Shown here: piece after piece, positions 11,784 through 47,675 of the stretch
How the letters are laid out: each line of letters opens with the position of its first letter
How positions within the stretch are numbered: the stretch's first letter is position 1
Origin: Heterohyrax brucei
Lineage: Eukaryota; Chordata; Mammalia; Hyracoidea; Procaviidae
DNA: 64,000 bases
Direction of reading: 5' to 3'
Assembly: GCA_028571685.1 (NCBI GenBank)
Contig: CM053166.1
Location: 61,342,111 to 61,406,110 of the forward strand
Translations under genes and position numbers: made by a program
The notes under the pieces: generated by a model
What the model saw: the letters and a program-made list of their open reading frames with translations, nothing else
Told to the model about the DNA's origin: nothing
Database searches by the model: none

Positions 11784-12117
11784 CTACACAGTGATTCATC
11801 TACCTAGAGAAGTTACAGAGGTTTACACAGAGAATTCCAAGTATAAGTACAAGAAAATAAGAGAGACTTAGAAAACTGGTAAAACCTACATTGTTGATAG
11901 AGTTGGGAGTACTTAGCACTGTGAAAACAGCACTTTCGCAGAATGAAATCTACTTCTCTAAGACCGCGAAACAGTGAAAAGAGAATGTATGAGTTTCTCA
12001 AGATTGGTAACAGATAGATACAAGACAAATACACAGTGATTCATCTACCTGGAGAAGTTATAGAGGTTTACACAGGGAATTCCAAGTATAAGTACAAGAA
12101 ATTAAGAGAGACTTAAG

Positions 12118-15100
12118 AAACTGGTAAAACCTACATTGTTGATAGAGTTGGGAGTACTTAGCACTGTGAAAACAGCACTTTGGCAGAATGAAATCTACTT
12201 GTCTAAGACCGGGAAACACTGAACAGAGAATGTATGAGTTTCTCAAGATTGGTAACAGATGGAAACAAGAGAAAGTACACAGTGATTCATCTACCTAGAG
12301 AAGTTACAGAGATTTACACAGAGAATTCCAAGTATAACTACAACAAAATAAGAGAGACTTAGAAAACTGGTAAAACCTACATTGTTGATACAGTTGGGAG
12401 TACTTAGCACTGTGAAAACAGCACTTTCGCAGAACGAATCTACTTGTCTAAGACCGGAAAACAGTGAACAGAGAATGTATGAGTTTCTCAAGACTGGTAA
12501 CAGATAGAAACAAGAGAAAGTACACAGTGATTCAACTACCTACAGAAGTTGCAGAGGTTTACACGGAGAATTCCAAGTATAACTGCAGGAAAATAGGAGA
12601 GACTTAGAAAACTGGTAAAATCTACATTGTTGATAGAGTTGGGAGTACTTAGCACTGTGAAAACTGCACTTTCGCAGAAAGAAATCTACTTCTCTAAGAC
12701 CGGGAAGCAGTGAAAAGAGAATGTATGAGTTTCTCAAGATTGGTAACAGATAGAAACCAGAGAAAGTACACAGTGATTCATCTACTTAGAGAAGTTACAG
12801 AGGATTACACAGAGAATTCCAAGTATAAGTACAAGAAAATAAGAGAGACTTAGAAAACTGGTAAAATGTACATTGTTGATAGAGTTGGGAGTACTTAGCA
12901 CTGTGAAAACAGCACTTTCGCAGAAAGAAATCTACTTCTCTAAGACCGCGAAACAGTGAAAAGAGAATGTATGAGTTTCTGAAGATTGGTAACAGACAGA
13001 TACAAGACAAATCCACAGTGATTCATCTACCTGGAGAAGTTATAGAGGTTTACACAGGGAATTCCAAGTATAAGTACAAGAAATTAAGAGAGACTTAAGA
13101 AACTGGTAAAACCTACATTGTTGATAGAGTTGGGAGTACTTAGCACTGTGAAAACAGCACATTCGCAGAAGGAAAACTACTTGTCTAAGACCCGGAAACA
13201 GTGAACAGAAAATGTATGAGTTTCTCAAGACTGGTAACAGATAGAAACAAGAGAAAGTACACAGTGATTCATGTACCTAGAGAAGTTACAGGGGTTTACA
13301 AAGAGAATTCCAAGTATAAGTACAAGAAAATAAGAGAGACTTAGAAAACTGGTAAAACCTACATTATTGATAGAGTTGGGAGTACTTAGCACTGCGAAAA
13401 CAGCACTTTCGCAGAAAGAAATCTACTTCTCTAAGACCGCGAAACAGTGAAAAGAGAATGTATGAGTTTCTCAAGATTGGTAACAGATAGAAATAAGAGA
13501 AAGTACACAGTGATTCAACTACCTAGAGAAGTTACAGAGGTTTACACAGAGAATTCCAAGTATAAGTACAAGAAAATAAGAGAGACTTAGAAAACTGGTA
13601 AAACCTACATTGTTGATAGAGTTGGGAGTACTTAGCACTGTGAAAACAGCACTTTGGCAGAATGAAATCTACTTGTCTAAGACCGGGAAACACTGAACAG
13701 AGAATGTATGAGTTTCTCAAGATTGGTAACAGATGGAAACAAGAGAAAGTACACAGTGATTCATCTACCTAGAGAAGTTACAGAGGTTTACACAGAGAAT
13801 TCCAAGTATAAGTACAAGAAAATAAGAGAGACTTAGAAAACTGGTAAAACCTACATTGTTGATAGAATTGGGAGTACGTAGCACTGTGAAAACAGCACTT
13901 TCGCAGAAGGAAAACTACTTGTCTAAGACCCGGAAACAGTGAACAGAGAATGTATGAGTTTCTCAAGATTGGTAACAGATAGAAACAAGAGAAAGTACAC
14001 AGTGATTCATCTACCTAGAGAAGTTACAGAGGTTTACACAGAGAATTCCAAGTATAAGTACAAGAAAATAAGAGAGACTTAGAAAACTGGTAAAACGTAC
14101 ATTGTTGATAGAGTTGGGAGTACTTAGCACTGTGAAAACAGCACTTTCGCAGAAAGAAATCTACTTCTCTAAGACCGCGAAACAGTGAAAAGAGAATGTA
14201 TGAGTTTCTCAAGATTGGTAACAGATAGAAACAAGAGAAAGTACACAGTGATTCACCTATCTAGAGAAGTTACAGAGGTTTACACAGAGAATTCCAAATA
14301 TAAGTACAAGAAAATAAGAGAGACTTAGAAAACTGGTAAAACCTACATTGTTGATAGAGTAGGGAGTACTTAGCACTGCGAAAACATCACTTTCGTAGAA
14401 AGAAATCTACTTCTCTAAGACCGCGAAACAGTGAAAAGAGAATGTATGAGTTTCTCAAGATTGGTAACAGATAGAAACAAGAGAAAGTACACAGTGATTC
14501 AACTACCTACAGAATTTGCAGAGGTTTACACAGAGAATTCCACGTATAAGTACCAGAAAATAGGAGAGACTTAAAAAACTGGTAAAATCTAAATTGTTGA
14601 TAGAGTTGGGAGTACTTAGCACTGTGAAAACAGCACTTTGGGAGAATGAAATCTACTTGTGTAAGATCGGGAAACAGTGAACAGAGAATATATGAGTTTC
14701 TCAAGATTGGTAACAGATAGAAACAAGAGAAAGTACACAGTGATTCATGTACCTAGAGAACTTACAGAGGTTTACAAAGAGAATTCCAAGTATAAGTACA
14801 AGAAAATAAGAGAGACTTAGACAACTGGTAAAACCTACATTTTTGATAGAGTTGGGAGTACTTAGCACTGCGAAAACAGTACTGTCGCAGAAAGAAAAAT
14901 ACTTCTCTAAGACCGCGAAACAGTGAAAAGAGAATGTATGAGTTTCTCAAGATTGGTAACAGATAGAAACAAGAGAAAGTACACAGTGATTCATCTACCT
15001 AGAGAAGTTACAGAGGTTTACACAGAGAATTCCAAGTATAAGTACAAGAAAATAAGAGAGACTTAGAAAACTGGTAAAACGTACATTGTTGATAGAGTTG

Positions 15101-15731
15101 GGAGTACTTAGCACAATGAAAACAGCACTTTCGCAGAAAGAAATCTACTTCTCTAAGACCGCGAAACAGTGAAAAGAGAATGTATGAGTTTCTCAAGATT
15201 GGTAACAGATAGAAAGAAGAGAAAGTACACAGTGATACACCTATCTAGAGAACTTACAGAGGTTTACACAGAGAATTCCAAGTATAAGTACAAGTAAATA
15301 AGAGAGACTTAGAAAACTGGTAAAACCTACATTGTTGATAGAGTTGGGAGTACTTAGCACTGTGAAAACAGCACTTTGGCAGAATGAAATCTACTTGTCT
15401 AAGACCGGGAAACAGTGAAAAGAGAATGTATGAGTTTCTCAAAATTGGTAACAGATGGAAACCAGAGAAAGTACACAGTGATTCATCTACCTAGAAAAGT
15501 TACAGAGGTTTACACAGAGAATTCCAAGTATAAGTACAAGAAAATAAGAGAGACTTAGAAAACTGGGAAAACCTACATTGTTGATAGAGTTGGCAGTACG
15601 TAGCACTGTGAAAACAGCACATTCGCAGAAGGAAAACTACTTCTCTAAGACCCGGAAACAGTGAACAGAGAATGTATGAGTTTCTCAAGATTGGTAACAG
15701 ATAGAAACAAGAGAAAGTACACAGTGATTCA
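12118..15731 (+). repeat. 3.6-kb internal block, occurrence 1 of 4
   Basis: This stretch matches 21209-24822 at +9091. The left limit is where ACTTAAGAAACTGG (P-type) meets ACTTAGAAAACTGG; the right limit is T at 15732 against G at 24823. The block holds S, Q, R, P/V, R, G, V', R, H, D, R, RN, G and V monomers. One difference seen is GAAAATG here against GAGAATG in the partner. Confidence 0.87.
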
Positions 15732-18700
15732 TCTACCTAGAGAAGTTACAGAGGTTTACACAGAGAATTCCAAGTATAAGTACAACAAAATAAGAGAGAC
15801 TTAGAAAACTGGTAAAACCTAAATTGTTGATACAGTTGGGAGTACTTAGCACTGTGAAAACAGCACTTTCGCAGAAAGAATCTACTTGTCTAAGACCGGA
15901 AAACAGTGAACAGAGAATGTATGAGTTTCTCAAGACTGGTAACAGATAGAAACAAGAGAAAGTACACAGTGATTCAACTACCTACAGAAGTTGCAGAGGT
16001 TTACACAGAGAATTCCAAGTATAAGTACATGAAAATAGGAGAGACTTAGAAAACTGGTAAAATCTACATTGTTGATAGAGTTGGGAGTACTTAGCACTGT
16101 GAAAACTGGACTTTCGCAGAAAGAAATCTACTTCTCTAAGACCGGGAAGCAGTGAAAAGAGAATGTATGAGTTTCTCAAGGTTGGTAACAGATAGAAACC
16201 AGAGAAAGTACACAGTGATTCATCTACCTAGAGAAGTTACAGAGGTTTACACAGAGAATTCCAAGTATAAGTACAAGAAAATAAGAGAGACTTAGAAAAC
16301 TGGTAAAACCTACATTGTTGATAGAGTTGGGAGTACTTAGCACTGTGAAAACAGCACTTTCGCAGAATGAAATCTACTTCTCTAAGACCGCGAAACAGTG
16401 AAAAGAGAATGTATGAGTTTCTCAAGATTGGTAACAGATAGATACAAGACAAATACACAGTGATTCATCTACCTGGAGAAGTTATAGAGGTTTACACAGG
16501 GAATTCCAAGTATAAGTACAAGAAATTAAGAGAGACTTAAGAAACTGGTAAAACCTACATTGTTGATAGAGTTGGGAGTACTTAGCACTGTGAAAACAGC
16601 ACTTTGGCAGAATGAAATCTACTTGTCTAAGACCGGGAAACAGTGAAAGGAGAATGTATGAGTTTCTCAAAATTGGTAACAGACGGAAACCAGAGAAAGT
16701 ACGCAGTGATTCATCTACCTAGAAAAGTTACAGAGGTTTACACAGAGAATTCCAAGTATAAGTACGAGAAAATAAGAGAGACTTAGAAAACTGGTAAAAC
16801 CTACATTGTTGATACAGTTGGGAGTAATTAGCACTGTGAAAACACCACTTTCGCAGAAAGAATCTACTTGTCTAAGACCGGAAAACAGTGAACAGAGAAT
16901 GTATGAGTTTCTCAAGACTGGTAACAGATAGAAACAAGAGAAAGTACACAGTGATTCACCTATCTAGAGAAGTTACAGAGGTTTACACAGAGAATTCCAA
17001 GTATAAGTACAAGAAAATAAAAGAGACTTAGAAAACTGGTAAAACCTACATTGTTGATAGAGTTGGGAGTACTTAGCACTGTGAAAACAGCACTTTGGCA
17101 GAATGAAATCTACTTGTCTAAGACCGGGAAACAGTGAAAAGAGAATGTATGAGTTTCTCAAAATTGGTAACAGATGGAAACCAGAGAAAGTACACAGTGA
17201 TTCATCTACCTAGAAAAGTTACAGAGGTTTACACAGAGAATTCCAAGTATAAGTACAAGAAAATAAGAGAGATTTAGAAAACTGGTAAAACCTACATTGT
17301 TGATAGAGTTGGCAGTACTTAGCACTGTGAAAACAGCACTTTGGGAGAATGAAATCTACTTGTCTAAGATCGGGAAACAGTGAACAGAGAATATATGAGT
17401 TTCTCAAGATTGGTAACAGATAGAAACAAGAGAAAGTACACAGTGATTCATGTACCTAGAGAAGTTACAGAGGTTTACAAAGAGAATTCCAAGTATAAGT
17501 ACAAGAAAATAAGAGAGACTTAGAAAACTGGTAAAACGTACATTGTTGATAGAGTTGGGAGTACTTAGCACTGTGAAAACTGCACTTTCGCAGAAAGAAA
17601 TCTACTTCTCTAAGACCGCGAAACAGTGAAAAGAGAATGTATGAGTTTCTCAAGATTGGTAACAGATAGAAACCAGAGAAACTACACAGTGATTCATCTA
17701 CCTAGAGAAGTTACAGAGGTTTACACAGAGAATTCCAAGTATAAGTACAAGAAAATAAGAGAGACTTAGAAAACTAGTAAAACCTACATTGTTGATAGAG
17801 TTGGGAGTACTTAGCACTGTGAAAACAGCACTTTGGCAGAATGAAATCTACTTGTCTAAGACCGGGAAACAGTGAAAAGAGAATGTATGAGTTTCTCAAA
17901 ATTGGTAACAGATGGAAACCAGAGAAAGTACGCAGTGATTCATCTACCTAGAAAAGTTACAGAGGTTTACACAGAGAATTCCAAGTATAAGTACAAGAAA
18001 ATAAGAGAGACTTAGAAAACTGGGAAAACCTACATTGTTGATAGAGTTGGGAGTACGTAGCAATGTGACAACAGCACATTCGCAGAAGGAAAACTACTTG
18101 TCTAAGACCCGGAAACAGTGAACAGAGAATGTATGAGTTTCTCAAGATTGGTTACAGATAGAAACAAGAGAAAGTACACAGTGATTCATCTACCTAGAGA
18201 AGTTACAGAGGTTTACACAGAGAATTCCAAGTATAAGTACAACAAAATAAGAGAGACTTAGAAAACTGGTAAAACCTACATTGTTGATACAGTTGGGAGT
18301 AATTAGCACTGTGAAAACAGCACTTTCGCAGAAAGAATCTACTTGTCTAAGACCGGAAAACAGTGAACAGAGAATGTATGAGTTTCTCAAGACTGGTAAC
18401 AGATAGAAACAAGAGAAAGTACACAGTGATTCAAGTACCTACAGAATTTACAGAGGTTTACACAGAGAATTCCAAGTATAAGTACAGGAAAATAGGAGAG
18501 ACTTAGAAAACTGGTAAAATCTACATTGTTGATAGAGTTGGAAGTACTTAGCACTGTGAAAACTGCACTTTCGCAGAAAGAAATCTACTTCTCTAAGACC
18601 GGGAAGCAGTGAAAAGAGAATGTATGAGTTTCTCAAGATTGGTAACAGATAGAAACCAGAGAAAGTACACAGTGGTTCATCTACCTAGAGAAGTTACAGA

Positions 18701-19878
18701 GGTTTACACAGAGAATTCCAAGTATAAGTACAAGAAAATAAGAGAGACTTAGAAAACTGGTAAAATGTACATTGTTGATAGAGTTGGGAGTACTTAGCAC
18801 TGTGAAAACAGCACTTTCGCAGAAAGAAATCTACTTCTCTAAGACCGCGAAACAGTGAAGAGAATGTATGAGTTTCTCAAGATTGGTAACAGATAGATAC
18901 AAGACAAATACACAGTGATTCATCTACCTCGAGAAGTTATAGAGGTTTACACAGGGAATTCCAAGTATAAGTACAAGAAATTAAGAGAGACTTAATAAAC
19001 TGGTAAAACCTACATTGTTGACAGAGTTGGGAGTACTTAGCACTGCGAAAACAGTACTTTCGCAGAAAGAAATCTACTTCTCTAAGACCGCGAAACAGTG
19101 AAAAGAGAATGTATGAGTTTCTCAAGATTGGTAACAGATAGAAACAAGAGAAAGTACACAGTGATTCATCTACCTAGAGAAGTTACAGAGGTTTACACAG
19201 AGAATTCCAAGTATAAGTACAAGAAAATAAGAGAGACTTAGAAAACTGGTAAAACGTACATTTTTGATAGAGTTGGGAGTACTTAGCACAATGAAAACAG
19301 CACTTTCGCAGAAAGAAATCTACTTCTCTAAGACCGCGAAACAGTGAAAAGAGAATGTATGAGTTTCTCAAGATTGGTAACAGATAGAAACAAGAGAAAG
19401 TACACAGTGATTCACCTATCTAGAGAAGTTACAGAGGTTTACACAGAGAATTCCAAGTATAAGTACAAGAAAATAAGAGAGACTTAGAAAACTGGTAAAA
19501 CCTATATTGTTGATAGAGTTGGGAGTACTTAGCACTGTGAAAACAGTACTTTGGCAGAATGAAATCTACTTGTCTAAGACCGGGAAACAGTGAAAAGAGA
19601 ATGTATGAGTTTCTCAAAATTGGTAACAGATGGAAACAAGGGAAAGTACACAGTGATTCATCTACCGAGAAAAGTTACAGAGGTTTACACAGAGAATTCC
19701 AAGTATAAGTACAAGAAAATAAGAGAGACTTAGAAAACTGGTAAAACCTACATTGTTGATAGAGTTGGCAGTACGTAGCACTGTGAAAACAGCACATTCG
19801 CAGAAGGAAAACTACTTGTCTAAGACCCGGAAACAGTGAACAGAGAATGTATGAGTTTCTCAAGATTGGTAACAGATA

Positions 19879-21352
19879 GAAACAAGAGAAAGTACACAGT
19901 GATTCATCTACCTAGAGAAGTTACAGAGATTTACACAGAGAATTCCAAGTATAACTACAACAAAATAAGAGAGACTTAGAAAACTGGTAAAACCTACATT
20001 GTTGATACAGTTGGGAGTACTTAGCACTGTGAAAACAGCACTTTCGCAGAACGAATCTACTTGTCTAACACCGGAAAACAGTGAACAGAGAATGTATGAG
20101 TTTCTCAAGACTGGTAACAGATAGAAACAAGAGAAAGTACACAGTGATTCAACTACCTACAGAAGTTGCAGAGGTTTACACGGAGAATTCCAAGTATAAC
20201 TGCAGGAAAATAGGAGAGACTTAGAAAACTGGTAAAATCTACATTGTTGATAGAGTTGGGAGTACTTAGCACTGTGAAAACTTCACTTTCGCAGAAAGAA
20301 ATCTACTTCTCTAAGACCGGGAAGCAGTGAAAAGAGAATGTATGAGTTTCTCAAGATTGGTAACAGATAGAATCCAGAGAAAGTACACAGTGATTCATCT
20401 ACTTAGAGAAGTTACAGAGGATTACACAGAGAATTCCAAGTATAAGTACAAGAAAATAAGAGAGACTTAGAAAACTGGTAAAATGTACATTGTTGATAGA
20501 GTTGGGAGTACTTAGCACTGTGAAAACAGCACTTTCGCAGAAAGAAATCTACTTCTCTAAGACCGCGAAACAGTGAAAAGAGAATGTATGAGTTTCTGAA
20601 GATTGGTAACAGACAGATACAAGACAAATCCACAGTGATTCATCTACCTGGAGAAGTTATAGAGGTTTACACAGGGAATTCCAAGTATAAGTACAAGAAA
20701 TTAAGAGAGACTTAAGAAACTGGTAAAACCTACATTGTTGATAGAGTTGGGAGTACTTAGCACTGTGAAAACAGCACATTCGCAGAAGGAAAACTACTTG
20801 TCTAAGACCCGGAAACAGTGAACAGAGAATGTATGAGTTTCTCAAGACTGGTAACAGATAGAAACAAGAGAAAGTACACAGTGATTCATGTACCTAGAGA
20901 AGTTACAGGGGTTTACAAAGAGAATTCCAAGTATAAGTACAAGAAAATAAGAGAGACTTAGAAAACTGGTAAAACCTACATTATTGATAGAGTTGGGAGT
21001 ACTTAGCACTGCGAAAACAGCACTTTCGCAGAAAGAAATCTACTTCTCTAAGACCGCGAAACAGTGAAAAGAGAATGTATGAGTTTCTCAAGATTGGTAA
21101 CAGATAGAAATAAGAGAAAGTACACAGTGATTCAACTACCTAGAGAAGTTACAGAGGTTTACACAGAGAATTCCAAGTATAAGTACAAGAAAATAAGAGA
21201 GACTTAGAAAACTGGTAAAACCTACATTGTTGATAGAGTTGGGAGTACTTAGCACTGTGAAAACAGCACTTTGGCAGAATGAAATCTACTTGTCTAAGAC
21301 CGGGAAACACTGAACAGAGAATGTATGAGTTTCTCAAGATTGGTAACAGATG
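19879..21352 (+). repeat. 6-mer repeat S-Q-R-P-R-G (1474 bp), copy 1
   Basis: Six monomers repeat at +1474. The left limit is A at 19878 against G at 21352 (GATAG versus GATGG). A few differences separate the copies: CACCGG/GACCGG near 20.07 kb, CTTCAC/CTGCAC near 20.28 kb, AATCCAG/AAACCAG near 20.37 kb. The order is the seven-monomer phrase with its V member missing. An equivalent pair starts at 37071 in the second 70-mer. Confidence 0.86.
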
Positions 21353-24300
21353 GAAACAAGAGAAAGTACACAGTGATTCATCTACCTAGAGAAGTTACAG
21401 AGATTTACACAGAGAATTCCAAGTATAACTACAACAAAATAAGAGAGACTTAGAAAACTGGTAAAACCTACATTGTTGATACAGTTGGGAGTACTTAGCA
21501 CTGTGAAAACAGCACTTTCGCAGAACGAATCTACTTGTCTAAGACCGGAAAACAGTGAACAGAGAATGTATGAGTTTCTCAAGACTGGTAACAGATAGAA
21601 ACAAGAGAAAGTACACAGTGATTCAACTACCTACAGAAGTTGCAGAGGTTTACACGGAGAATTCCAAGTATAACTGCAGGAAAATAGGAGAGACTTAGAA
21701 AACTGGTAAAATCTACATTGTTGATAGAGTTGGGAGTACTTAGCACTGTGAAAACTGCACTTTCGCAGAAAGAAATCTACTTCTCTAAGACCGGGAAGCA
21801 GTGAAAAGAGAATGTATGAGTTTCTCAAGATTGGTAACAGATAGAAACCAGAGAAAGTACACAGTGATTCATCTACTTAGAGAAGTTACAGAGGATTACA
21901 CAGAGAATTCCAAGTATAAGTACAAGAAAATAAGAGAGACTTAGAAAACTGGTAAAATGTACATTGTTGATAGAGTTGGGAGTACTTAGCACTGTGAAAA
22001 CAGCACTTTCGCAGAAAGAAATCTACTTCTCTAAGACCGCGAAACAGTGAAAAGAGAATGTATGAGTTTCTGAAGATTGGTAACAGACAGATACAAGACA
22101 AATCCACAGTGATTCATCTACCTGGAGAAGTTATAGAGGTTTACACAGGGAATTCCAAGTATAAGTACAAGAAATTAAGAGAGACTTAAGAAACTGGTAA
22201 AACCTACATTGTTGATAGAGTTGGGAGTACTTAGCACTGTGAAAACAGCACATTCGCAGAAGGAAAACTACTTGTCTAAGACCCGGAAACAGTGAACAGA
22301 GAATGTATGAGTTTCTCAAGACTGGTAACAGATAGAAACAAGAGAAAGTACACTGTGATTCATGTACCTAGAGAAGTTACAGGGGTTTACAAAGAGAATT
22401 CCAAGTATAAGTACAAGAAAATAAGAGAGACTTAGAAAACTGGTAAAACCTACATTATTGATAGAGTTGGGAGTACTTAGCACTGCGAAAACAGCACTTT
22501 CGCAGAAAGAAATCTACTTCTCTAAGACCGCGAAACAGTGAAAACAGAATGTATGAGTTTCTCAAGATTGGTAACAGATAGAAATAAGAGAAAGTACACA
22601 GTGATTCAACTACCTAGAGAAGTTACAGAGGTTTACACAGAGAATTCCAAGTATAAGTACAAGAAAATAAGAGAGACTTAGAAAACTGGTAAAACCTACA
22701 TTGTTGATAGAGTTGGGAGTACTTAGCACTGTGAAAACAGCACTTTGGCAGAATGAAATCTACTTGTCTAAGACCGGGAAACACTGAACAGAGAATGTAT
22801 GAGTTTCTCAAGATTGGTAACAGATGGAAACAAGAGAAAGTACACAGTGATTCATCTACCTAGAGAAGTTACAGAGGTTTACACAGAGAATTCCAAGTAT
22901 AAGTACAAGAAAATAAGAGAGACTTAGAAAACTGGTAAAACCTACATTGTTGATAGAATTGGGAGTACGTAGCACTGTGAAAACAGCACTTTCGCAGAAG
23001 GAAAACTACTTGTCTAAGACCCGGAAACAGTGAACAGAGAATGTATGAGTTTCTCAAGATTGGTAACAGATAGAAACAAGAGAAAGTACACAGTGATTCA
23101 TCTACCTAGAGAAGTTACAGAGGTTTACACAGAGAATTCCAAGTATAAGTACAAGAAAATAAGAGAGACTTAGAAAACTGGTAAAACGTACATTGTTGAT
23201 AGAGTTGGGAGTACTTAGCACTGTGAAAACAGCACTTTCGCAGAAAGAAATCTACTTCTCTAAGACCGCGAAACAGTGAAAAGAGAATGTATGAGTTTCT
23301 CAAGATTGGTAACAGATAGAAACAAGAGAAAGTACACAGTGATTCACCTATCTAGAGAAGTTACAGAGGTTTACACAGAGAATTCCAAATATAAGTACAA
23401 GAAAATAAGAGAGACTTAGAAAACTGGTAAAACCTACATTGTTGATAGAGTAGGGAGTACTTAGCACTGCGAAAACATCACTTTCGTAGAAAGAAATCTA
23501 CTTCTCTAAGACCGCGAAACAGTGAAAAGAGAATGTATGAGTTTCTCAAGATTGGTAACAGATAGAAACAAGAGAAAGTACACAGTGATTCAACTACCTA
23601 CAGAATTTGCAGAGGTTTACACAGAGAATTCCACGTATAAGTACCAGAAAATAGGAGAGACTTAAAAAACTGGTAAAATCTAAATTGTTGATAGAGTTGG
23701 GAGTACTTAGCACTGTGAAAACAGCACTTTGGGAGAATGAAATCTACTTGTGTAAGATCGGGAAACAGTGAACAGAGAATATATGAGTTTCTCAAGATTG
23801 GTAACAGATAGAAACAAGAGAAAGTACACAGTGATTCATGTACCTAGAGAACTTACAGAGGTTTACAAAGAGAATTCCAAGTATAAGTACAAGAAAATAA
23901 GAGAGACTTAGACAACTGGTAAAACCTACATTTTTGATAGAGTTGGGAGTACTTAGCACTGCGAAAACAGTACTGTCGCAGAAAGAAATCTACTTCTCTA
24001 AGACCGCGAAACAGTGAAAAGAGAATGTATGAGTTTCTCAAGATTGGTAACAGATAGAAACAAGAGAAAGTACACAGTGATTCATCTACCTAGAGAAGTT
24101 ACAGAGGTTTACACAGAGAATTCCAAGTATAAGTACAAGAAAATAAGAGAGACTTAGAAAACTGGTAAAACGTACATTGTTGATAGAGTTGGGAGTACTT
24201 AGCACAATGAAAACAGCACTTTCGCAGAAAGAAATCTACTTCTCTAAGACCGCGAAACAGTGAAAAGAGAATGTATGAGTTTCTCAAGATTGGTAACAGA

Positions 24301-24822
24301 TAGAAAGAAGAGAAAGTACACAGTGATACACCTATCTAGAGAACTTACAGAGGTTTACACAGAGAATTCCAAGTATAAGTACAAGTAAATAAGAGAGACT
24401 TAGAAAACTGGTAAAACCTACATTGTTGATAGAGTTGGGAGTACTTAGCACTGTGAAAACAGCACTTTGGCAGAATGAAATCTACTTGTCTAAGACCGGG
24501 AAACAGTGAAAAGAGAATGTATGAGTTTCTCAAAATTGGTAACAGATGGAAACCAGAGAAAGTACACAGTGATTCATCTACCTAGAAAAGTTACAGAGGT
24601 TTACACAGAGAATTCCAAGTATAAGTACAAGAAAATAAGAGAGACTTAGAAAACTGGGAAAACCTACATTGTTGATAGAGTTGGCAGTACGTAGCACTGT
24701 GAAAACAGCACATTCGCAGAAGGAAAACTACTTCTCTAAGACCCGGAAAAAGTGAACAGAGAATGTATGAGTTTCTCAAGATTGGTAACAGATAGAAACA
24801 AGAGAAAGTACACAGTGATTCA
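21209..24822 (+). repeat. 3.6-kb internal block, occurrence 2 of 4
   Basis: Partner of 12118-15731 at +9091 (37 monomers). Private changes include CACTGTGATT near 22.36 kb, AAAACAGAATG near 22.54 kb, and GGAAAAAGTG for GGAAACAGTG near 24750. Confidence 0.87.
21353..22826 (+). repeat. 6-mer repeat S-Q-R-P-R-G (1474 bp), copy 2
   Basis: Second copy of the 19879 unit. The match runs on to about 22876, where GAGGTTTAC replaces GAGATTTAC and a V' monomer follows. Confidence 0.86.
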
Positions 24823-35219: not shown

Positions 35220-37173
35220 GAAAACCTACATTGTTGATAGAGTTGGGAGTAGCTAGCAATGTGACAACAGCACATTCGCAGAAGGAAAACTACTTGTCTA
35301 AGACCCGGAAACAGTGAACAGAGAATGTATGAGTTTCTCAAGATTGGTTACAGATAGAAACAAGAGAAAGTACACAGTGATTCATCTACCTAGAGAAGTT
35401 ACAGAGGTTTACACAGAGAATTCCAAGTATAAGTACAACAAAATAAGAGAGACTTAGAAAACTGGTAAAACCTACATTGTTGATACAGTTGGGAGTAATT
35501 AGCACTGTGAAAACAGCACTTTCGCAGAAAGAATCTACTTGTCTAAGACCGGAAAACAGTGAACAGAGAATGTATGAGTTTCTCAAGACTGGTAACAGAT
35601 AGAAACAAGAGAAAGTACACAGTGATTCAAGTACCTACAGAATTTACAGAGGTTTACACAGAGAATTCCAAGTATAAGTACAGGAAAATAGGAGAGACTT
35701 AGAAAACTGGTAAAATCTACATTGTTGATAGAGTGGAAGTACTTAGCACTGTGAAAACTGCACTTTCGCAGAAAGAAATCTACTTCTCTAAGACCGGGAA
35801 GCAGTGAAAAGAGAATGTATGAGTTTCTCAAGATTGGTAACAGATAGAAACCAGAGAAAGTACACAGTGGTTCATCTACCTAGAGAAGTTACAGAGGTTT
35901 ACACAGAGAATTCCAAGTATAAGTACAAGAAAATAAGAGAGACTTAGAAAACTGGTAAAATGTACATTGTTGATAGAGTTGGGAGTACTTAGCACTGTGA
36001 AAACAGCACTTTCGCAGAAAGAAATCTACTTCTCTAAGACCGCGAAACAGTGAAGAGAATGTATGAGTTTCTCAAGATTGGTAACAGATAGATACAAGAC
36101 AAATACACAGTGATTCATCTACCTCGAGAAGTTATAGAGGTTTACACAGGAATTCCAAGTATAAGTACAAGAAATTAAGAGAGACTTAATAAACTGGTAA
36201 AACCTACATTGTTGACAGAGTTGGGAGTACTTAGCACTGCGAAAACAGTACTTTCGCAGAAAGAAATCTACTTCTCTAAGACCGCGAAACAGTGAAAAGA
36301 GAATGTATGAGTTTCTCAAGATTGGTAACAGATAGAAACAAGAGAAAGTACACAGTGATTCATCTACCTAGAGAAGTTACAGAGGTTTACACAGAGAATT
36401 CCAAGTATAAGTACAAGAAAATAAGAGAGACTTAGAAACTGGTAAAACGTACATTTTTGATAGAGTTGGGAGTACTTAGCACAATGAAAACAGCACTTTC
36501 GCAGAAAGAAATCTACTTCTCTAAGACCGCGAAACAGTGAAAAGAGAATGTATGAGTTTCTCAAGATTGGTAACAGATAGAAACAAGAGAAAGTACACAG
36601 TGATTCACCTATCTAGAGAAGTTACAGAGGTTTACACAGAGAATTCCAAGTATAAGTACAAGAAATAAGAGAGACTTAGAAAACTGGTAAAACCTATATT
36701 GTTGATAGAGTTGGGAGTACTTAGCACTGTGAAAACAGTACTTTGGCAGAATGAAATCTACTTGTCTAAGACCGGGAAACAGTGAAAAGAGAATGTATGA
36801 GTTTCTCAAAATTGGTAACAGATGGAAACAAGGGAAAGTACACAGTGATTCATCTACCGAGAAAAGTTACAGAGGTTTACACAGAGAATTCCAAGTATAA
36901 GTACAAGAAAATAAGAGAGACTTAGAAAACTGGTAAAACCTACATTGTTGATAGAGTTGGCAGTACGTAGCACTGTGAAAACAGCACATTCCGCAGAAGG
37001 AAAACTACTTGTCTAAGACCCGGAAACAGTGAACAGAGAATGTATGAGTTTCTCAAGATTGGTAACAGATAGAAACAAGAGAAAGTACACAGTGATTCAT
37101 CTACCTAGAGAAGTTACAGAGATTTACACAGAGAATTCCAAGTATAACTACAACAAATAAGAGAGACTTAGAT
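35220..37173 (+). other. Cluster of seven single-base indels in one 70-mer copy
   Basis: Compared with 18.0-20.0 kb, this stretch has single-base losses near 35220 (GGG to GG), 35733 (TT to T), 36150 (GGG to GG), 36436, 36664 and 37157 (AAAA to AAA). It also has a gain near 36991 (C to CC), a swapped CG/GC pair at 35252-35253 and A to T at 37173. The other 15 kb of the same alignment shows a constant offset. Six of seven events shorten a homopolymer. This is more like a poorly polished consensus than real divergence. Confidence 0.8.
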
Positions 37174-38400
37174 AACTGGTAAAACCTACATTGTTGATAC
37201 AGTTGGGAGTACTTAGCACTGTGAAAACAGCACTTTCGCAGAACGAATCTACTTGTCTAACACCGGAAAACAGTGAACAGAGAATGTATGAGTTTCTCAA
37301 GACTGGTAACAGATAGAAACAAGAGAAAGTACACAGTGATTCAACTACCTACAGAAGTTGCAGAGGTTTACACGGAGAATTCCAAGTATAACTGCAGGAA
37401 AATAGGAGAGACTTAGAAAACTGGTAAAATCTACATTGTTGATAGAGTTGGGAGTACTTAGCACTGTGAAAACTTCACTTTCGCAGAAAGAAATCTACTT
37501 CTCTAAGACCGGGAAGCAGTGAAAAGAGAATGTATGAGTTTCTCAAGATTGGTAACAGATAGAATCCAGAGAAAGTACACAGTGATTCATCTACTTAGAG
37601 AAGTTACAGAGGATTACACAGAGAATTCCAAGTATAAGTACAAGAAAATAAGAGAGACTTAGAAAACTGGTAAAATGTACATTGTTGATAGAGTTGGGAG
37701 TACTTAGCACTGTGAAAACAGCACTTTCGCAGAAAGAAATCTACTTCTCTAAGACCGCGAAACAGTGAAAAGAGAATGTATGAGTTTCTGAAGATTGGTA
37801 ACAGACAGATACAAGACAAATCCACAGTGATTCATCTACCTGGAGAAGTTATAGAGGTTTACACAGGGAATTCCAAGTATAAGTACAAGAAATTAAGAGA
37901 GACTTAAGAAACTGGTAAAACCTACATTGTTGATAGAGTTGGGAGTACTTAGCACTGTGAAAACAGCACATTCGCAGAAGGAAAACTACTTGTCTAAGAC
38001 CCGGAAACAGTGAACAGAGAATGTATGAGTTTCTCAAGACTGGTAACAGATAGAAACAAGAGAAAGTACACAGTGATTCATGTACCTAGAGAAGTTACAG
38101 GGGTTTACAAAGAGAATTCCAAGTATAAGTACAAGAAAATAAGAGAGACTTAGAAAACTGGTAAAACCTACATTATTGATAGAGTTGGGAGTACTTAGCA
38201 CTGCGAAAACAGCACTTTCGCAGAAAGAAATCTACTTCTCTAAGACCGCGAAACAGTGAAAAGAGAATGTATGAGTTTCTCAAGATTGGTAACAGATAGA
38301 AATAAGAGAAAGTACACAGTGATTCAACTACCTAGAGAAGTTACAGAGGTTTACACAGAGAATTCCAAGTATAAGTACAAGAAAATAAGAGAGACTTAGA

Positions 38401-41400
38401 AAACTGGTAAAACCTACATTGTTGATAGAGTTGGGAGTACTTAGCACTGTGAAAACAGCACTTTGGCAGAATGAAATCTACTTGTCTAAGACCGGGAAAC
38501 ACTGAACAGAGAATGTATGAGTTTCTCAAGATTGGTAACAGATGGAAACAAGAGAAAGTACACAGTGATTCATCTACCTAGAGAAGTTACAGAGATTTAC
38601 ACAGAGAATTCCAAGTATAACTACAACAAAATAAGAGAGACTTAGAAAACTGGTAAAACCTACATTGTTGATACAGTTGGGAGTACTTAGCACTGTGAAA
38701 ACAGCACTTTCGCAGAACGAATCTACTTGTCTAAGACCGGAAAACAGTGAACAGAGAATGTATGAGTTTCTCAAGACTGGTAACAGATAGAAACAAGAGA
38801 AAGTACACAGTGATTCAACTACCTACAGAAGTTGCAGAGGTTTACACGGAGAATTCCAAGTATAACTGCAGGAAAATAGGAGAGACTTAGAAAACTGGTA
38901 AAATCTACATTGTTGATAGAGTTGGGAGTACTTAGCACTGTGAAAACTGCACTTTCGCAGAAAGAAATCTACTTCTCTAAGACCGGGAAGCAGTGAAAAG
39001 AGAATGTATGAGTTTCTCAAGATTGGTAACAGATAGAAACCAGAGAAAGTACACAGTGATTCATCTACTTAGAGAAGTTACAGAGGATTACACAGAGAAT
39101 TCCAAGTATAAGTACAAGAAAATAAGAGAGACTTAGAAAACTGGTAAAATGTACATTGTTGATAGAGTTGGGAGTACTTAGCACTGTGAAAACAGCACTT
39201 TCGCAGAAAGAAATCTACTTCTCTAAGACCGCGAAACAGTGAAAAGAGAATGTATGAGTTTCTGAAGATTGGTAACAGACAGATACAAGACAAATCCACA
39301 GTGATTCATCTACCTGGAGAAGTTATAGAGGTTTACACAGGGAATTCCAAGTATAAGTACAAGAAATTAAGAGAGACTTAAGAAACTGGTAAAACCTACA
39401 TTGTTGATAGAGTTGGGAGTACTTAGCACTGTGAAAACAGCACATTCGCAGAAGGAAAACTACTTGTCTAAGACCCGGAAACAGTGAACAGAGAATGTAT
39501 GAGTTTCTCAAGACTGGTAACAGATAGAAACAAGAGAAAGTACACTGTGATTCATGTACCTAGAGAAGTTACAGGGGTTTACAAAGAGAATTCCAAGTAT
39601 AAGTACAAGAAAATAAGAGAGACTTAGAAAACTGGTAAAACCTACATTATTGATAGAGTTGGGAGTACTTAGCACTGCGAAAACAGCACTTTCGCAGAAA
39701 GAAATCTACTTCTCTAAGACCGCGAAACAGTGAAAACAGAATGTATGAGTTTCTCAAGATTGGTAACAGATAGAAATAAGAGAAAGTACACAGTGATTCA
39801 ACTACCTAGAGAAGTTACAGAGGTTTACACAGAGAATTCCAAGTATAAGTACAAGAAAATAAGAGAGACTTAGAAAACTGGTAAAACCTACATTGTTGAT
39901 AGAGTTGGGAGTACTTAGCACTGTGAAAACAGCACTTTGGCAGAATGAAATCTACTTGTCTAAGACCGGGAAACACTGAACAGAGAATGTATGAGTTTCT
40001 CAAGATTGGTAACAGATGGAAACAAGAGAAAGTACACAGTGATTCATCTACCTAGAGAAGTTACAGAGGTTTACACAGAGAATTCCAAGTATAAGTACAA
40101 GAAAATAAGAGAGACTTAGAAAACTGGTAAAACCTACATTGTTGATAGAATTGGGAGTACGTAGCACTGTGAAAACAGCACTTTCGCAGAAGGAAAACTA
40201 CTTGTCTAAGACCCGGAAACAGTGAACAGAGAATGTATGAGTTTCTCAAGATTGGTAACAGATAGAAACAAGAGAAAGTACACAGTGATTCATCTACCTA
40301 GAGAAGTTACAGAGGTTTACACAGAGAATTCCAAGTATAAGTACAAGAAAATAAGAGAGACTTAGAAAACTGGTAAAACGTACATTGTTGATAGAGTTGG
40401 GAGTACTTAGCACTGTGAAAACAGCACTTTCGCAGAAAGAAATCTACTTCTCTAAGACCGCGAAACAGTGAAAAGAGAATGTATGAGTTTCTCAAGATTG
40501 GTAACAGATAGAAACAAGAGAAAGTACACAGTGATTCACCTATCTAGAGAAGTTACAGAGGTTTACACAGAGAATTCCAAATATAAGTACAAGAAAATAA
40601 GAGAGACTTAGAAAACTGGTAAAACCTACATTGTTGATAGAGTAGGGAGTACTTAGCACTGCGAAAACATCACTTTCGTAGAAAGAAATCTACTTCTCTA
40701 AGACCGCGAAACAGTGAAAAGAGAATGTATGAGTTTCTCAAGATTGGTAACAGATAGAAACAAGAGAAAGTACACAGTGATTCAACTACCTACAGAATTT
40801 GCAGAGGTTTACACAGAGAATTCCACGTATAAGTACCAGAAAATAGGAGAGACTTAAAAAACTGGTAAAATCTAAATTGTTGATAGAGTTGGGAGTACTT
40901 AGCACTGTGAAAACAGCACTTTGGGAGAATGAAATCTACTTGTGTAAGATCGGGAAACAGTGAACAGAGAATATATGAGTTTCTCAAGATTGGTAACAGA
41001 TAGAAACAAGAGAAAGTACACAGTGATTCATGTACCTAGAGAACTTACAGAGGTTTACAAAGAGAATTCCAAGTATAAGTACAAGAAAATAAGAGAGACT
41101 TAGACAACTGGTAAAACCTACATTTTTGATAGAGTTGGGAGTACTTAGCACTGCGAAAACAGTACTGTCGCAGAAAGAAATCTACTTCTCTAAGACCGCG
41201 AAACAGTGAAAAGAGAATGTATGAGTTTCTCAAGATTGGTAACAGATAGAAACAAGAGAAAGTACACAGTGATTCATCTACCTAGAGAAGTTACAGAGGT
41301 TTACACAGAGAATTCCAAGTATAAGTACAAGAAAATAAGAGAGACTTAGAAAACTGGTAAAACGTACATTGTTGATAGAGTTGGGAGTACTTAGCACAAT

Positions 41401-42014
41401 GAAAACAGCACTTTCGCAGAAAGAAATCTACTTCTCTAAGACCGCGAAACAGTGAAAAGAGAATGTATGAGTTTCTCAAGATTGGTAACAGATAGAAAGA
41501 AGAGAAAGTACACAGTGATACACCTATCTAGAGAACTTACAGAGGTTTACACAGAGAATTCCAAGTATAAGTACAAGTAAATAAGAGAGACTTAGAAAAC
41601 TGGTAAAACCTACATTGTTGATAGAGTTGGGAGTACTTAGCACTGTGAAAACAGCACTTTGGCAGAATGAAATCTACTTGTCTAAGACCGGGAAACAGTG
41701 AAAAGAGAATGTATGAGTTTCTCAAAATTGGTAACAGATGGAAACCAGAGAAAGTACACAGTGATTCATCTACCTAGAAAAGTTACAGAGGTTTACACAG
41801 AGAATTCCAAGTATAAGTACAAGAAAATAAGAGAGACTTAGAAAACTGGGAAAACCTACATTGTTGATAGAGTTGGCAGTACGTAGCACTGTGAAAACAG
41901 CACATTCGCAGAAGGAAAACTACTTCTCTAAGACCCGGAAAAAGTGAACAGAGAATGTATGAGTTTCTCAAGATTGGTAACAGATAGAAACAAGAGAAAG
42001 TACACAGTGATTCA
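38401..42014 (+). repeat. 3.6-kb internal block, occurrence 4 of 4
   Basis: Same block inside the second 70-mer, at +17192 from occurrence 2, and sharing that copy's private variants, including GGAAAAAGTG near 41942. Confidence 0.87.
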
Positions 42015-45000
42015 GCTACCTAGAGAAGTTACAGAGGTTTACACAGAGAATTCCAAGTATAAGTACAAGAAAATAAGAGAGACTTAGAAAACTGGTAAAA
42101 CGTACATTGTTGATAGAGTTGGGAGTACTTAGCACAATGAAAACAGCACTTTCGCAGAAAGAAATCTACTTCTCTAAGACCGCGAAACAGTGAAAAGAGA
42201 ACGTATGAGTTTCTCAAGATTGGTAACAGATAGATACAAGACAAATAAACAGTGATTCATCTACCTGGAGAAGTTATAGAGGTTTACACAGGGAATTCCA
42301 AGTATAAGTACAAGAAATTAAGAGAGACTTAAGAAACTGGTAAAACCTACATTGTTGATAGAGTTGGGAGTACTTAGCACGGTGGAAAGAGCACTTTGAC
42401 AGAATGAAATCTACTTGTCTAGGACCGGGAAACAGTGAACAGAGAATGTATGAGTTTCTCAAGATTGGTAACAGATAGAAACAAGAGAAGGTACACAGTG
42501 ATTCAACTACCTACAGAATTTGCAGAGGTTTACACAGAGAATTCCAAGTATAAGTACAAGAAAATATGAGAGACTTAGAAAACTGGTAAAATCTACATTG
42601 TTGATAGAGTTGGGAGTACTTAGCACTGTGAAAACAGCACTTTGGGAGAATGAAATCTACTTGTCTAAGATCGGGAAACAGTGAACAGAGAATATATGAG
42701 TTTCTCAAGATTGGTAACAGATAGAAACAAGAGAAAGTACACAGTGATTCATGTACCTAGAGAAGTTACAGAGGTTTACAAAGAGAATTCCAAGTATAAG
42801 TACAAGAAAATAAGAGAGACTTAGACAACTGGTAAAACCTACATTGTTGATAGAGTTGGGAGTACTTAGCACTGCGAAAACAGTACTTTCGCAGAAAGAA
42901 ATCTACTTCTCTAAGACCGCGAAACAGTGAAAATAGAATGTATGAGTTTCTCAAGATTGGTAACAGATAGAAACAAGAGAAAGTACACAGTGATTCAACT
43001 ATCTAGAGAAGTTACAGAGGTTTACACAGAGAATTCCAAGTATAAGTACAAGAAAATAAGAGAGACTTAGAAAACTGGTAAAACCTACATTGTTGATAGA
43101 GTTGGGAGTACTTAGCACTGTGAAAACAGCACTTTGGCAGAATGAAATCTACTTGTCTAAGACCGGGAAACAGTGAAAAGAGAATGTATGAGTTTCTCAA
43201 AATTCGTAACAGATGGAAACCAGAGAAAGTACGCAGTGATTCATCTACCTAGAAAAGTTACAGAGGTTTAGACAGAGAATTCCAAGTATAAGTACAAGAA
43301 AATAAGAGACACTTAGAAAACTGGGAAAACCTACATTGTTGATAGAGTTGGGAGTACATAGCACTGTGAAAACAGCACATTCGCAGAAGGAAAACTACTT
43401 GTCAAAGACCCGGAAACAGTGAACAGAGAATGTATGAGTTTCTCAAGATTGGTTACAGATAGAAACAAGAGAAAGTACACAGTGATTCATCTACCTAGAG
43501 AAGTTACAGAGGTTTACACAGAGAATTCCAAGTATAAGTACAACAAAATGAGAGACTTAGAAAACTGGTAAAACCTACATTTTTGATACAGTTGGGAGTA
43601 ATTAGCACTGTGAAAACAGCACTTTCGCAGAAAGAATCTACTTGTCTAAGACCGGAAAACAGTGAACAGAGAATGTATGAGTTTCTCAAGACTGGTAACA
43701 GATAGAAACAAGAGAAAGTACACAGTGATTCAACTACCTACAGAATTTACAGAGGTTTACACAGAGAATTCCAAGTATAAGTACAGGAAAATAGGAGAGA
43801 CTTAGAAAACTGGTAAAATCTATATTGTTGATAGAGTTGGGAGTACTTAGCACTGTGAAAACTGCACTTTCGCAGAAAGAAATCTACTTCTCTAAGACCG
43901 GGAAGCAGTGAAAAGAGAATGTATGAGTTTCTCAAGATTGGTAACAGATAGAAACCAGAGAAAGTACACAGTGATTCATCTACCTAGAGAAGTTACAGAG
44001 GTTTACACAGAGAATTCCAAGTATAAGTACAAGAAAATAAGAGAGACTTAGAAAACTGGTAAAACCTACATTGTTCATAGAGTTGGGAGTACTTAGCACT
44101 GTGAAAACAGAACTTTGGCAGAATGAAATCTACTTGTCTAAGACCGGGAAACAGTGAAAAGAGAATGTATGAGTTTCTCAAGATTGGTAACAGATAGATA
44201 CAAGACAAATACACAGTGATTCATCTACCTGGAGAAGTAATAGAGGTTTACACAGGGAATTCCAAGTATAAGTACAAGAAATTAAGAGAGACTTAAGAAA
44301 CTGGTAAAACCTACATTGTTGATAGAGTTGGGAGTACTTAGCACTGTGAAAACAGCACATTCGCAGAAGGAAAACTACTTGTCTAAGACCCGGAAACAGT
44401 GAACAGAGAATGTATGAGTTTCTCAAGATTGGTAACAGATAGAAACAAGAGAAAGTACACAGTGATTCATGTACCTAGAGAAGTTACAGAGGTTTACAAA
44501 GAGAATTCCAAGTATAAGTACAAGAAAATAAGAGAGACTTAGAAAACTGGTAAAACCTACATTGTTGATAGAGTTGGGAGTACTTAGCACTGTGAAAACA
44601 GCACTTTCGCAGAAAGAAATCTACTTCTCTAAGACCGCGAAACAGTGAAAAGAGAATGTATGAGTTTCTCAAGATTGGTAACAGATAGAAATAAGAGAAA
44701 GTACACAGTGATTCAACTACCTAGAGAAGTTACAGAGGTTTACACAGAGAATTCCAAGTATAAGTACAAGAAAATAAGAGAGACTTAGAAAACTGGTAAA
44801 ACCTACATTGTTGATAGAGTTGGGAGTACTTAGCACTGTGAAAACAGCACTTTGGCAGAATGAAATCTACTTGTCTAAGACCGGGAAACAGTGAAAAGAG
44901 AATGTATGAGTTTCTCAAAATTGGTAACAGATGGAAACCAGAGAAAGTACGCAGTGATTCATCTACCTAGAAAAGTTACAGAGGTTTAGACAGAGAATTC

Positions 45001-47675
45001 CAAGTATAAGTACAAGAAAATAAGAGAGACTTAGAAAACTGCTAAAACCTACATTGTTCATAGAATTGGGAGTACGTAGCACTGTGAAAACAGCACTTTC
45101 GCAGAAGGAAAACTACTTGTCTAAGACCCGGAAACAGTGAACAGAGAATGTATGAGTTTCTCAAGATTGGTAACAGATAGAAACAAGAGAAACTACACAG
45201 TGATTCATCTACCTAAAAAGTTACAGAGGTTTACACAGAGAATTCCAAGTATAAGTACAAGAAAATAAGAGAGACTTAGAAAACTGGTAAAACGTACATT
45301 GTTGATAGAGTTGGGAGTACTTAGCACTGTGAAAACAGCACTTTCGCAGAAAGAAATCTACTTCTCTAAGACCGCGAAGCAGTGAAAAGAGAATGTATGA
45401 GTTTCTCAAGATTGGTAACAGATAGAAACAAGAGAAAGTACACAGTGATTCACCTATCTAGAGAAGTTACAGAGGTTTACACAGAGAATTCCAAATATAA
45501 GTACAAGAAAATAAGAGAGACGTAGAAAACTAGTAAAACCTACATTGTTGATAGCGTAGGGAGTACTTAGCACTGCGAAAACATCACTTTCGTAGAAAGA
45601 AATCTACTTCTCTAAGACCGCGACACAGTGAAAAGAGAATGTATGAGTTTCTCAAGATTGGTAACAGATAGAAACCAGAGAAAGTACACAGTCATTCATC
45701 TACCTAGAGAAGTTACAGAGGTTTACAAAGAGAATTCCAAGTATAAGTAGAAGAAAATAAGAGAGACTTAGAAAACTGGTAAAACCTACATTGTTGATAG
45801 AGTTGGGAATACGTAGCACTGTGAAAACAGAACTTTGGCAGAATGAAATCTACTTGTCTAAGACCGGGAAACAGTGAAAAGAGAATGTATGAGTTTCTCA
45901 AGATTGGTAACAGATAGATACAAGACAAATACACAGTGATTCATCTACCTGGAGAAGTTATAGAGGTTTACACAGGGAATTCCAATTATAAGTACAAGAA
46001 ATTAAGAGAGACTTAAGAAACTGGTAAAACCTACATTGTTGATAGAGTTGGGAGTACTTAGCACGGTGAAAACAGCACTTTGGCAGAATGAAATCTACTT
46101 GTCTAGGATCGGGAAACAGTGAACAGAGAATGTATGAGTTTCTCAAGATTGGTAACAGACAGAAACAAGAGAAAGTACACAGTGATTCAACTACCTACAG
46201 AAGTTGCAGAGGTTTACACAGAGAATTCCAAGTATAAGTACAGGAAAATAGGAGAGACTTAGAAAACTGGTAAAATCTACATTGTTGATAGAGTTGGGAG
46301 TACTTAGCACTGTGAAAACTGCACTTTCGCAGAAAGAAATCTACTTCTTTAACACCGCGAAACAGTGAAGAGAATGTATGAGTTTCTCAAGACTGGTAAC
46401 AGATAGATACAAGACAAATACACAGTGATTCATCTACCTCGAGAAGTTATAGAGGTTTACACAGGGAATTCCAAGTATAAGTACAAGAAATTAAGAGAGA
46501 CTTAAGAAACTGGTAAAACCTACATTGTTGACAGAGTTGGGAGTACTTAGCACGGTGAAAACAGCACTTTGGCAGAATGAAATCTACTTGTCTAAGACCG
46601 GGAAACAGTGAACAGAGAATGTATGAGTTTCTCAAGATTGGTAACAGATAGAAACAAAAGAAAGTACACAGTGATTCATCTACGTAGAGAAGTTACAGAG
46701 GTTTACACAGAGAATTCCAAGTATAAGTACAAGAAAATAAGAGAGATTTAGAAAACTGGTAAAACCTACATTGTTGATAGAGTAGGGAGTACTTAGCACG
46801 GCGAAAACATCACTTTCGTAGAAAGAAATCTTCTTCTCTAAGACCGCGAAACAGTGAAAAGAGAATGTATGAGTTTCTCAAGATTGGTAACAGATAGAAA
46901 CCAGAGAAAGTACTCAGTCATTCATCTACCTAGAGAAGTTACAGTGGTTTACAAAGAGAATTCCAAGTATAAGTAGAAGAAAATAAGAGAGACTTAGAAA
47001 ACTGGTAAAACCTACATTGTTCATAGAGTTGGGAGTACTTAGCACTGTGAAAACAGAACTTTGGCAGAATGAAATCTACTTGTCTAAGACCGGGAAACAG
47101 TGAAAAGAGAATGTATGAGTTTCTCAAGATTGGTAACAGATAGATACAAGACAAATACACAGTGATTCATCTACCTGGAGAAGTTATAGAGGTTTACACA
47201 GGGAATTCCAAGTATAAGTACAAGAAATTAAGAGAGACTTAAGAAACTGGTAAAACCTACATTGTTGATAGAGTTGGGAGTACTTAGCACTGTGAAAACA
47301 GCACATTCGCAGAAGGAAAACTACTTGTCTAAGACCCGGAAACAGTGAACAGAGAATGTATGAGTTTCTCAAGATTGGTAACAGATAGAAACAAGAGAAA
47401 GTACACAGTGATTCATGTACCTAGAGAAGTTACAGAGGTTTACAAAGAGAATTCCAAGTATAAGTACAAGAAAATAAGAGAGACTTAGAAAACTGGTAAA
47501 ACCTACATTGTTGATAGAGTTGGGAGTACTTAGCACTGCGAAAACAGCACTTTCGCAGAAAGAAATCTACTTCTCTAAGACCGCGAAACAGTGAAAAGAG
47601 AATGTATGAGTTTCTCAAGATTGGTAACAGATAGAAATAAGAGAAAGTACACAGTGATTCAACTACCTAGAGAAG

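What the first reader, a model, noticed from the sequence alone, without database searches (positions are those of the whole stretch)
12005..46393. A 70-monomer (17.2 kb) higher-order unit in tandem, nearly identical
Direct comparison shows a constant offset of 17,197 then 17,192 bp, with rare private bases shared by both copies. A 70-mer with no simple internal periodicity is long for a satellite higher-order unit, and the junction can be placed within 46 bases (29202-29247). Either this is a very recent large unequal exchange, or the assembler duplicated one copy.
Basis: partly seen in the sequence, partly recalled or inferred. Interest (0 to 1): 0.7.

Follow-up and report, generated by a model that had tools for sequence, protein, structure and literature searches.

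The report
Recent large duplications within a satellite
A 64-kb stretch of a 246-base satellite repeat carries a 17-kb block of 70 units copied once in tandem and a 9-kb block of 38 units copied more than twice, all practically identical: ordinary satellite turnover on an unusually large scale, unless the assembler made part of it.

Summary
The whole window is one head-to-tail 246-bp, non-coding satellite array (259 full monomers, mean pairwise identity 93.3%). A 70-monomer block at 12005-29201 is repeated at 29202-46393, with a 46-bp junction tract at 29202-29247. The copies differ at nine places, all within 1,956 bp of copy 2 (35218-37173). Seven of the nine are one-base homopolymer-length changes. 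That looks like residual long-read error, so the true divergence may be zero. "No simple internal periodicity" is wrong: the 70-mer holds an older 15-monomer block twice, a 6-monomer tandem and traces of a scrambled 7-monomer order. Best reading: very recent exchange or copying in monomer register, in a satellite already shuffled by the same process. Assembly duplication is not excluded, because the uncorrected patch suggests thin read support inside copy 2. Closest precedents are human 52-mer and orangutan 59-mer alpha-satellite units (0.2% and 0.1% between copies). The organism was not identified, no reads were available, and the tool that searches the window's own assembly did not complete.

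The parts
1..64000 (+). uninterrupted head-to-tail satellite array, 246-bp monomer (243-247), GC 36% in the consensus, 62% purine on the + strand; no ORF of 100 aa or more, no Rfam match at gathering score
12005..29201 (+). 70-mer unit, copy 1 (the end of m048, then m049 to most of m118), 17,197 bp
29202..46393 (+). 70-mer unit, copy 2, 17,192 bp
29202..29247 (+). junction interval of the 70-mer duplication: 46 bp identical to 12005-12050 and 46394-46439
35218..37173 (+). patch of copy 2 holding all nine differences between the copies: six 1-base homopolymer losses, one 1-base homopolymer gain, one CG>GC, one A>T; each changed 21-mer occurs once in the window
41943..51270 (+). 38-mer unit (9,328 bp), copy 1; its first part is also the end of 70-mer copy 2
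51271..60598 (+). 38-mer unit, copy 2, no difference from copy 1
60599..62854 (+). 38-mer unit, partial copy 3 (2,256 bp), identical to 24751-27006, 41943-44198 and 51271-53526; beyond it the array matches 46566-47798 best among the tracts tested (99.3%, 62768-64000)
12118..15785 (+). older block B (about 15 monomers), first copy inside the 70-mer; also at 29315-32982
21209..24876 (+). older block B', 7 mismatches from B in 3,668 bp, 37 monomers downstream; also at 38401-42068
19879..22876 (+). tandem 6-monomer duplication (19879-21402 against 21353-22876, 5 mismatches), overlap at the junction 50 bp
24751..24876 (+). 126-bp overlap between the end of block B' and the start of the 38-mer sequence (also 41943-42068): read as a recombination junction
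8967..11903 (+). separate 6-monomer tandem duplication in the left flank (8967-10427 against 10443-11903, 4 mismatches)

Best explanation
This is a non-coding, presumably eukaryotic satellite array turning over by homologous exchange or copying in monomer register, between sister chromatids, homologues or nascent strands. SHOWN: a 70-monomer block in tandem, with a 46-bp identity tract at the join, in monomer phase, the monomers on either side of the join being only 94.7% (m048/m118) and 97.6% (m119/m189) alike; an overlapping 38-monomer block in 2.24 exact copies; older blocks of 6 and about 15 monomers at 99.7-99.8%; and traces of a 7-monomer order underneath. INFERRED: one unequal exchange, between the sequence now at 12005-12050 on one partner and that now at 46394-46439 on the other, made the 70-mer duplication. 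The 38-mer tandem probably existed before it, because the 38-mer tract starts where block B' ends (126-bp overlap) and the 70-mer carries that junction in both copies. The nine differences in copy 2 are base-calling errors, so both events are recent enough to have left no other difference. It is probably passive satellite turnover; no function for the 70-mer itself is implied.
For: Sharp edges, and a tract only 46 bp longer than the repeat distance, are what one exchange leaves. Phase was kept: 70 and 38 whole monomers. A graded series of older, smaller duplications shows that the process is habitual here. Monomer labels recur at lag 7 (44 matches against 20.9 in 2,000 shuffles, z 6.1), and neighbour order carries 1.21 bits against a shuffle maximum of 0.43. 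All seven indels vanish after homopolymer compression; two sites remain. Human centromeres show de novo alpha-satellite changes of 680 to 12,228 bp in one transmission (PMC12240836, passages), so 9-17 kb is near a known scale.
Against: No reads, no depth, no second haplotype and no sequence beyond the window could be examined. Zero difference over 11.6 kb, and effectively over 17.2 kb, is also what an assembly artefact gives. The uncorrected patch in copy 2 is awkward: if both copies were real and identical, pooled reads should have corrected it better. A single simple exchange does not give 2.24 copies of the 38-mer; at least two events or a multi-pass copying event are needed. Two papers caution against simple unequal crossover: one reads the spread of new human alpha-satellite units as implicating other mechanisms (PMC11062924, passages), the other finds none of 27 euchromatic de novo structural variants at recombination crossovers (PMC12240836, passages).
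Confidence: 0.62

Rival explanations
1. Assembly duplication: the genome has one 70-mer block (and perhaps one 38-mer block), and the assembler walked a repeat loop twice, using a poorly corrected read inside copy 2.
For: Copies identical except for the patch. With the patch, the longest exact repeat at this spacing is 9,266 bp; without it the exact repeat would be about 17.2 kb, longer than many accurate reads (general knowledge), so errors in one read could have been taken for a second copy. Misestimated homopolymer length is named the primary HiFi error mode (PMC7545148, passages).
Against: The patch begins about 6 kb inside copy 2 and ends about 9 kb before its far end, so it is at neither junction. 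Printing one unitig twice would give no private patch. The same window shows several smaller duplications with graded divergence, which assembly is not expected to produce. The 38-mer, exact in 2.24 copies, would need its own error.
Confidence: 0.3
2. The nine differences are real: copy 2 was made by error-prone break-induced replication, which leaves frameshift mutations as it copies.
For: Seven of nine events are one-base homopolymer changes, and at eight of nine the copy-1 form recurs elsewhere in the window while the copy-2 form does not. Break-induced replication greatly stimulates frameshifts (PMC3039667, abstract).
Against: [quoted passage not shown] The same pattern is the commonest error of accurate long reads. 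The exact 38-mer copies show no frameshift in 11.6 kb.
Confidence: 0.04
3. The 70-mer is the established higher-order unit of a long homogeneous array, of which the window shows only two copies.
For: Identity between units is far above identity between monomers.
Against: Neither flank within the window continues the 70-monomer period: identity falls to about 93% in the 0.4 kb left and 0.75 kb right that were aligned, and monomer pairs beyond the edges are at 0.91-0.97. The tract length equals one repeat distance plus 46 bp.
Confidence: 0.04

Closest known systems
Human chromosome 21 alpha-satellite 52-mer HOR (PMC12385485; passages read)
   Same: Very long unit, two complete tandem copies, 0.2% divergence between copies
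   Different: Alpha monomers about 17.7% divergent within a unit; here 246-bp monomers about 7% divergent on average, 70 monomers, and no credible divergence between copies
Orangutan chromosome 13 59-mer alpha-satellite HOR, called the largest in primates (PMC11276891; passages read)
   Same: Very long unit with repeated monomer types inside it ('cascading'), 0.1% divergence between copies; a 7-mer HOR array in the same centromere
   Different: Eight copies (six canonical, two 56-mer variants); alpha satellite; divergence within a unit 22.4%
De novo size changes in human alpha-satellite arrays, 680 to 12,228 bp (PMC12240836; passages read)
   Same: Gains and losses of whole units in one generation, on the scale of the 38-mer
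   Different: They involve whole HOR cassettes; here the join lies between monomers that were not HOR partners

Membership tests
Satellite higher-order repeat (HOR) | Multi-monomer unit repeated in tandem with identity between units far above identity between its monomers | tested here: met
   Mean monomer identity between the 70-mer copies 99.9%, between the 38-mer copies 100% over the tract; monomers 93.3% on average
Satellite higher-order repeat (HOR) | Unit homogenised over many copies, as an array (a stricter sense; PMC12385485 calls a two-copy 52-mer a HOR) | tested here: inconclusive
   Two copies of the 70-mer and 2.24 of the 38-mer within the window, with sharp edges; the array beyond the window could not be seen
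Willard-type HOR | All monomers of the unit of different types | tested here: not met
   The 70-mer contains block B twice and the 6-mer tandem
Alpha satellite | About 171-bp monomer | tested here: not met
   Monomer 246 bp
Centromeric satellite with CENP-B box | CENP-B box (motif recalled, nine fixed positions) | tested here: not met
   At most 7 of 9 positions on either strand of the window
Centromeric satellite | Bound by centromeric histone H3, or located at the centromere | not testable with these tools
   No chromatin or map data
Coding tandem repeat or macrosatellite with a gene | Open reading frame through the units | tested here: not met
   No ORF of 100 aa or more from ATG, GTG or TTG, open ends included

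The most novel reading that the evidence does not exclude
Both duplications are real and at most a few thousand generations old, so this locus catches the birth of higher-order units: joins between monomers that were not HOR partners created a 38-monomer and a 70-monomer unit from a decayed 7-mer order, the 70-mer being longer than the largest primate alpha-satellite unit (59-mer) named in the papers seen here. In the boldest form, the nine clustered, mostly frameshift-type changes are real marks of break-induced copying.
Probability: 0.12. Interest if true: 0.5.

Novelty: new member of a known kind. Interest (0 to 1): 0.33.

Why it matters
If real, it shows that very large higher-order units can arise by joins between monomers of about 95-98% identity, and it gives two overlapping, undiverged duplications that can be ordered and dated. 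If an artefact, it is a clear example of an error patch helping to separate, or invent, repeat copies in a satellite, and a caution against reading long HOR units from assemblies without reads.

Tried and rejected
Coding repeat (246 is divisible by 3): rejected, no ORF of 100 aa or more. RNA family: none at gathering score. CENP-B box: best 7 of 9.

Relatives in public collections: no match among plasmids or phages with one 746-bp piece of the window, and none in bacterial and archaeal genome contigs or viral contigs with one 20-base pattern. These say little about eukaryotes.

Literature on the monomer length or sequence: ('246 bp', satellite, centromere) 0 papers; (any 3 of six terms, two of them '246 bp' and '246-bp') 697 papers, 20 listed, none of the 20 with 246 bp; ('246 bp', satDNA) 0; ('246-bp', satellite) one unrelated paper; (six 16-base strings) 0; (70mer, HOR, satellite, tandem repeat) 0. 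Only the open papers of that library were searched. PMC4053949 has no '246' in its main text; its supplement was not open to me.

Phase preference of breakpoints within the monomer: a few junction intervals were compared by eye. Edges can only be placed at variable sites and they are too few, so no claim is made.

Misleading outputs: the first homopolymer-compression print-out lost register after a two-base shift and listed thousands of false mismatches; one search repeated it in register (two differing sites). In one search one trial at offset 29,965 gave only a short tract and was not used.

The global alignments put small gaps near the ends of the compared stretches (at 11599, 11977, 29633, 29963; 41499, 41925, 53537, 54029). 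They lie outside the identical tracts and were not counted among the nine differences; nor were the substitutions there.

Full report
What the window is. The 64 kb form one tandem array of a 246-bp unit (Tandem Repeats Finder: 260.6 copies, 92% matches, one row). Cutting at a conserved anchor gives 260 anchors on the + strand, none on the - strand, and 259 full monomers of 243-247 bp. Their mean pairwise identity is 93.3% (range 86.6-100%), and 124 of 259 are distinct. The consensus is 36% GC, and the + strand is 62% purine. There is no ORF of 100 aa or more, no Rfam match at gathering score and no CENP-B box (at most 7 of 9 fixed positions, motif recalled). The organism was not identified: ten requests to the tool that searches the window's own assembly did not complete. 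That it is eukaryotic is inferred from its being a long satellite.

The observation. At offset 17,197 and then 17,192 the array repeats itself. Alignment gives an identical tract from 12005 to 29247 against 29202 to 46439, broken only in one patch. Its edges are sharp: 12004/29201 and 29248/46440 differ, and in the aligned flanks (0.4 kb left, 0.75 kb right) identity falls to about 93%. In monomers, m049-m118 match m119-m188, that is 70.

The differences are not an age signal. Within the tract there are nine events: six one-base losses, one one-base gain, one CG>GC and one A>T. All lie in 35218-37173 of copy 2. At each event the copy-2 21-mer is found once in the window. The copy-1 21-mer is found 2 to 180 times at eight of the nine; at the CG>GC site it too is unique, so that site cannot be polarised this way. 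All seven indels change a run length and disappear after homopolymer compression, leaving two differing sites in about 12,870 compressed positions. Nine random events would fall within such a span with a probability near 2.5e-7 (analytic; none of 2,000,000 simulations).

Outside the patch, indels seen in only one monomer are few: m001, m027 and m036 in the left flank. A fourth left-flank monomer, m013, shares its gap column with the patch monomer m145, so that one patch change has a parallel. Other indels in the 70-mer are shared by both copies. [quoted passage not shown] I therefore read the patch as residual sequencing error, and the true divergence as zero or at most two sites. Zero in 17,243 bp gives a 95% upper bound of 1.7e-4 per site. 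At the human centromere mutation rates in PMC12240836 (3.27e-8 and 1.01e-7; passages) that is about 2,700 or 860 generations. This is only a yardstick, as the species is unknown.

A second duplication overlaps the end of the first: 41943-53526 equals 51271-62854 with no difference in 11,584 bp at a distance of 9,328 bp, 38 monomers. That is two full copies and a third of 2,256 bp, after which the array matches 46566-47798 at 99.3%. The 2,256-bp piece occurs four times identically, including inside 70-mer copy 1.

The 70-mer is itself composite. A block of about 15 monomers occurs twice in it, 37 monomers apart, with 7 mismatches in 3,668 bp (12118-15785 and 21209-24876). A 6-monomer tandem (19879-21402 and 21353-22876, 5 mismatches) sits at the start of the second block.

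A 7-monomer order underneath. I sorted 138 monomers (m001-m118 and m189-m208) into groups. With eight groups, chosen after looking at six, seven, eight and ten, label matches peak at lag 7 (44 against 20.9 expected, z 6.1), and neighbour order carries 1.21 bits against a maximum of 0.43 in 2,000 shuffles. The 138 include both copies of the 15-monomer block and the 6-monomer tandem, which inflates these figures. Plain identity autocorrelation is less clear: lag 7 stands third of the lags in m171-m208 and in m049-m118, and is weak (+0.2 points) in m001-m048. So the order is a relic, uneven along the window, but 'no simple internal periodicity' is not correct.

History. The layers in order of inferred age are: the 7-monomer order; the shuffling and the 6- and 15-monomer blocks; the 38-mer tandem; the 70-mer duplication. 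That the 38-mer preceded the 70-mer is inferred: the 38-mer tract begins where block B' ends (126-bp overlap, 24751-24876 and again 41943-42068), which fits an existing 38-mer tandem joined to B' and then duplicated with it. With no mutations to order them, this remains an inference. In the 70-mer event the partners were ordinary monomers, 94.7% and 97.6% alike on the two sides, so it kept monomer register but did not need HOR register. The 2.24 copies of the 38-mer require two events, or one multi-pass copying event, or an older 38-mer array cut at both ends.

Mechanism. [quoted passage not shown] Exchange between sister chromatids or replication-based copying would leave the same sequence.

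Real or assembled? For reality: a graded series of smaller duplications, the monomer phase, and the known tempo of such events (18 de novo structural variants in 150 human centromere transmissions, 13 of them in alpha-satellite HOR arrays, those ranging from 680 to 12,228 bp; PMC12240836). For an artefact: no credible divergence in either duplication, and an uncorrected patch in copy 2, which suggests thin read support at a place where two identical copies should have doubled the reads available for correction. The patch also shortens the longest exact repeat from about 17.2 to 9.3 kb, so it could be what let the assembler keep two copies apart, rightly or wrongly. Without reads I put a real duplication at about 0.62 and an assembly error at about 0.30.

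Comparison. Very long units are known: a human 52-mer with two copies at 0.2% (PMC12385485, passages) and an orangutan 59-mer with eight copies at 0.1%, called the largest in primates (PMC11276891, passages); a 58-mer is listed for the orangutan Y (PMC12428378, search listing only). HORs were found in 76 of 171 species with Sanger data and are called widespread in plants and animals (PMC4053949, passages). The 70-mer is longer than these, in a different satellite, with much more uniform monomers, but it is the same kind of thing. On the evidence of the window it is a large tandem duplication rather than a homogenised HOR array.

Noticed in passing
window 41943-62854: Second, overlapping tandem duplication: 38 monomers, 9,328 bp, 2.24 copies, no difference in 11,584 bp.
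   Followed up: yes
window 35218-37173: Cluster of homopolymer-length changes in copy 2 only, likely a poorly polished patch.
   Followed up: yes
window 1-64000: Relic 7-monomer order (about 1.72 kb), uneven along the array.
   Followed up: partly
window 8967-11903: 6-monomer tandem duplication in the left flank, at a different place from the 6-monomer tandem inside the 70-mer.
   Followed up: partly
window 11798-12042 and 16222-16466: Monomer m048, at the left edge of the 70-mer, is identical to m066 (and m136) inside it.
   Followed up: no
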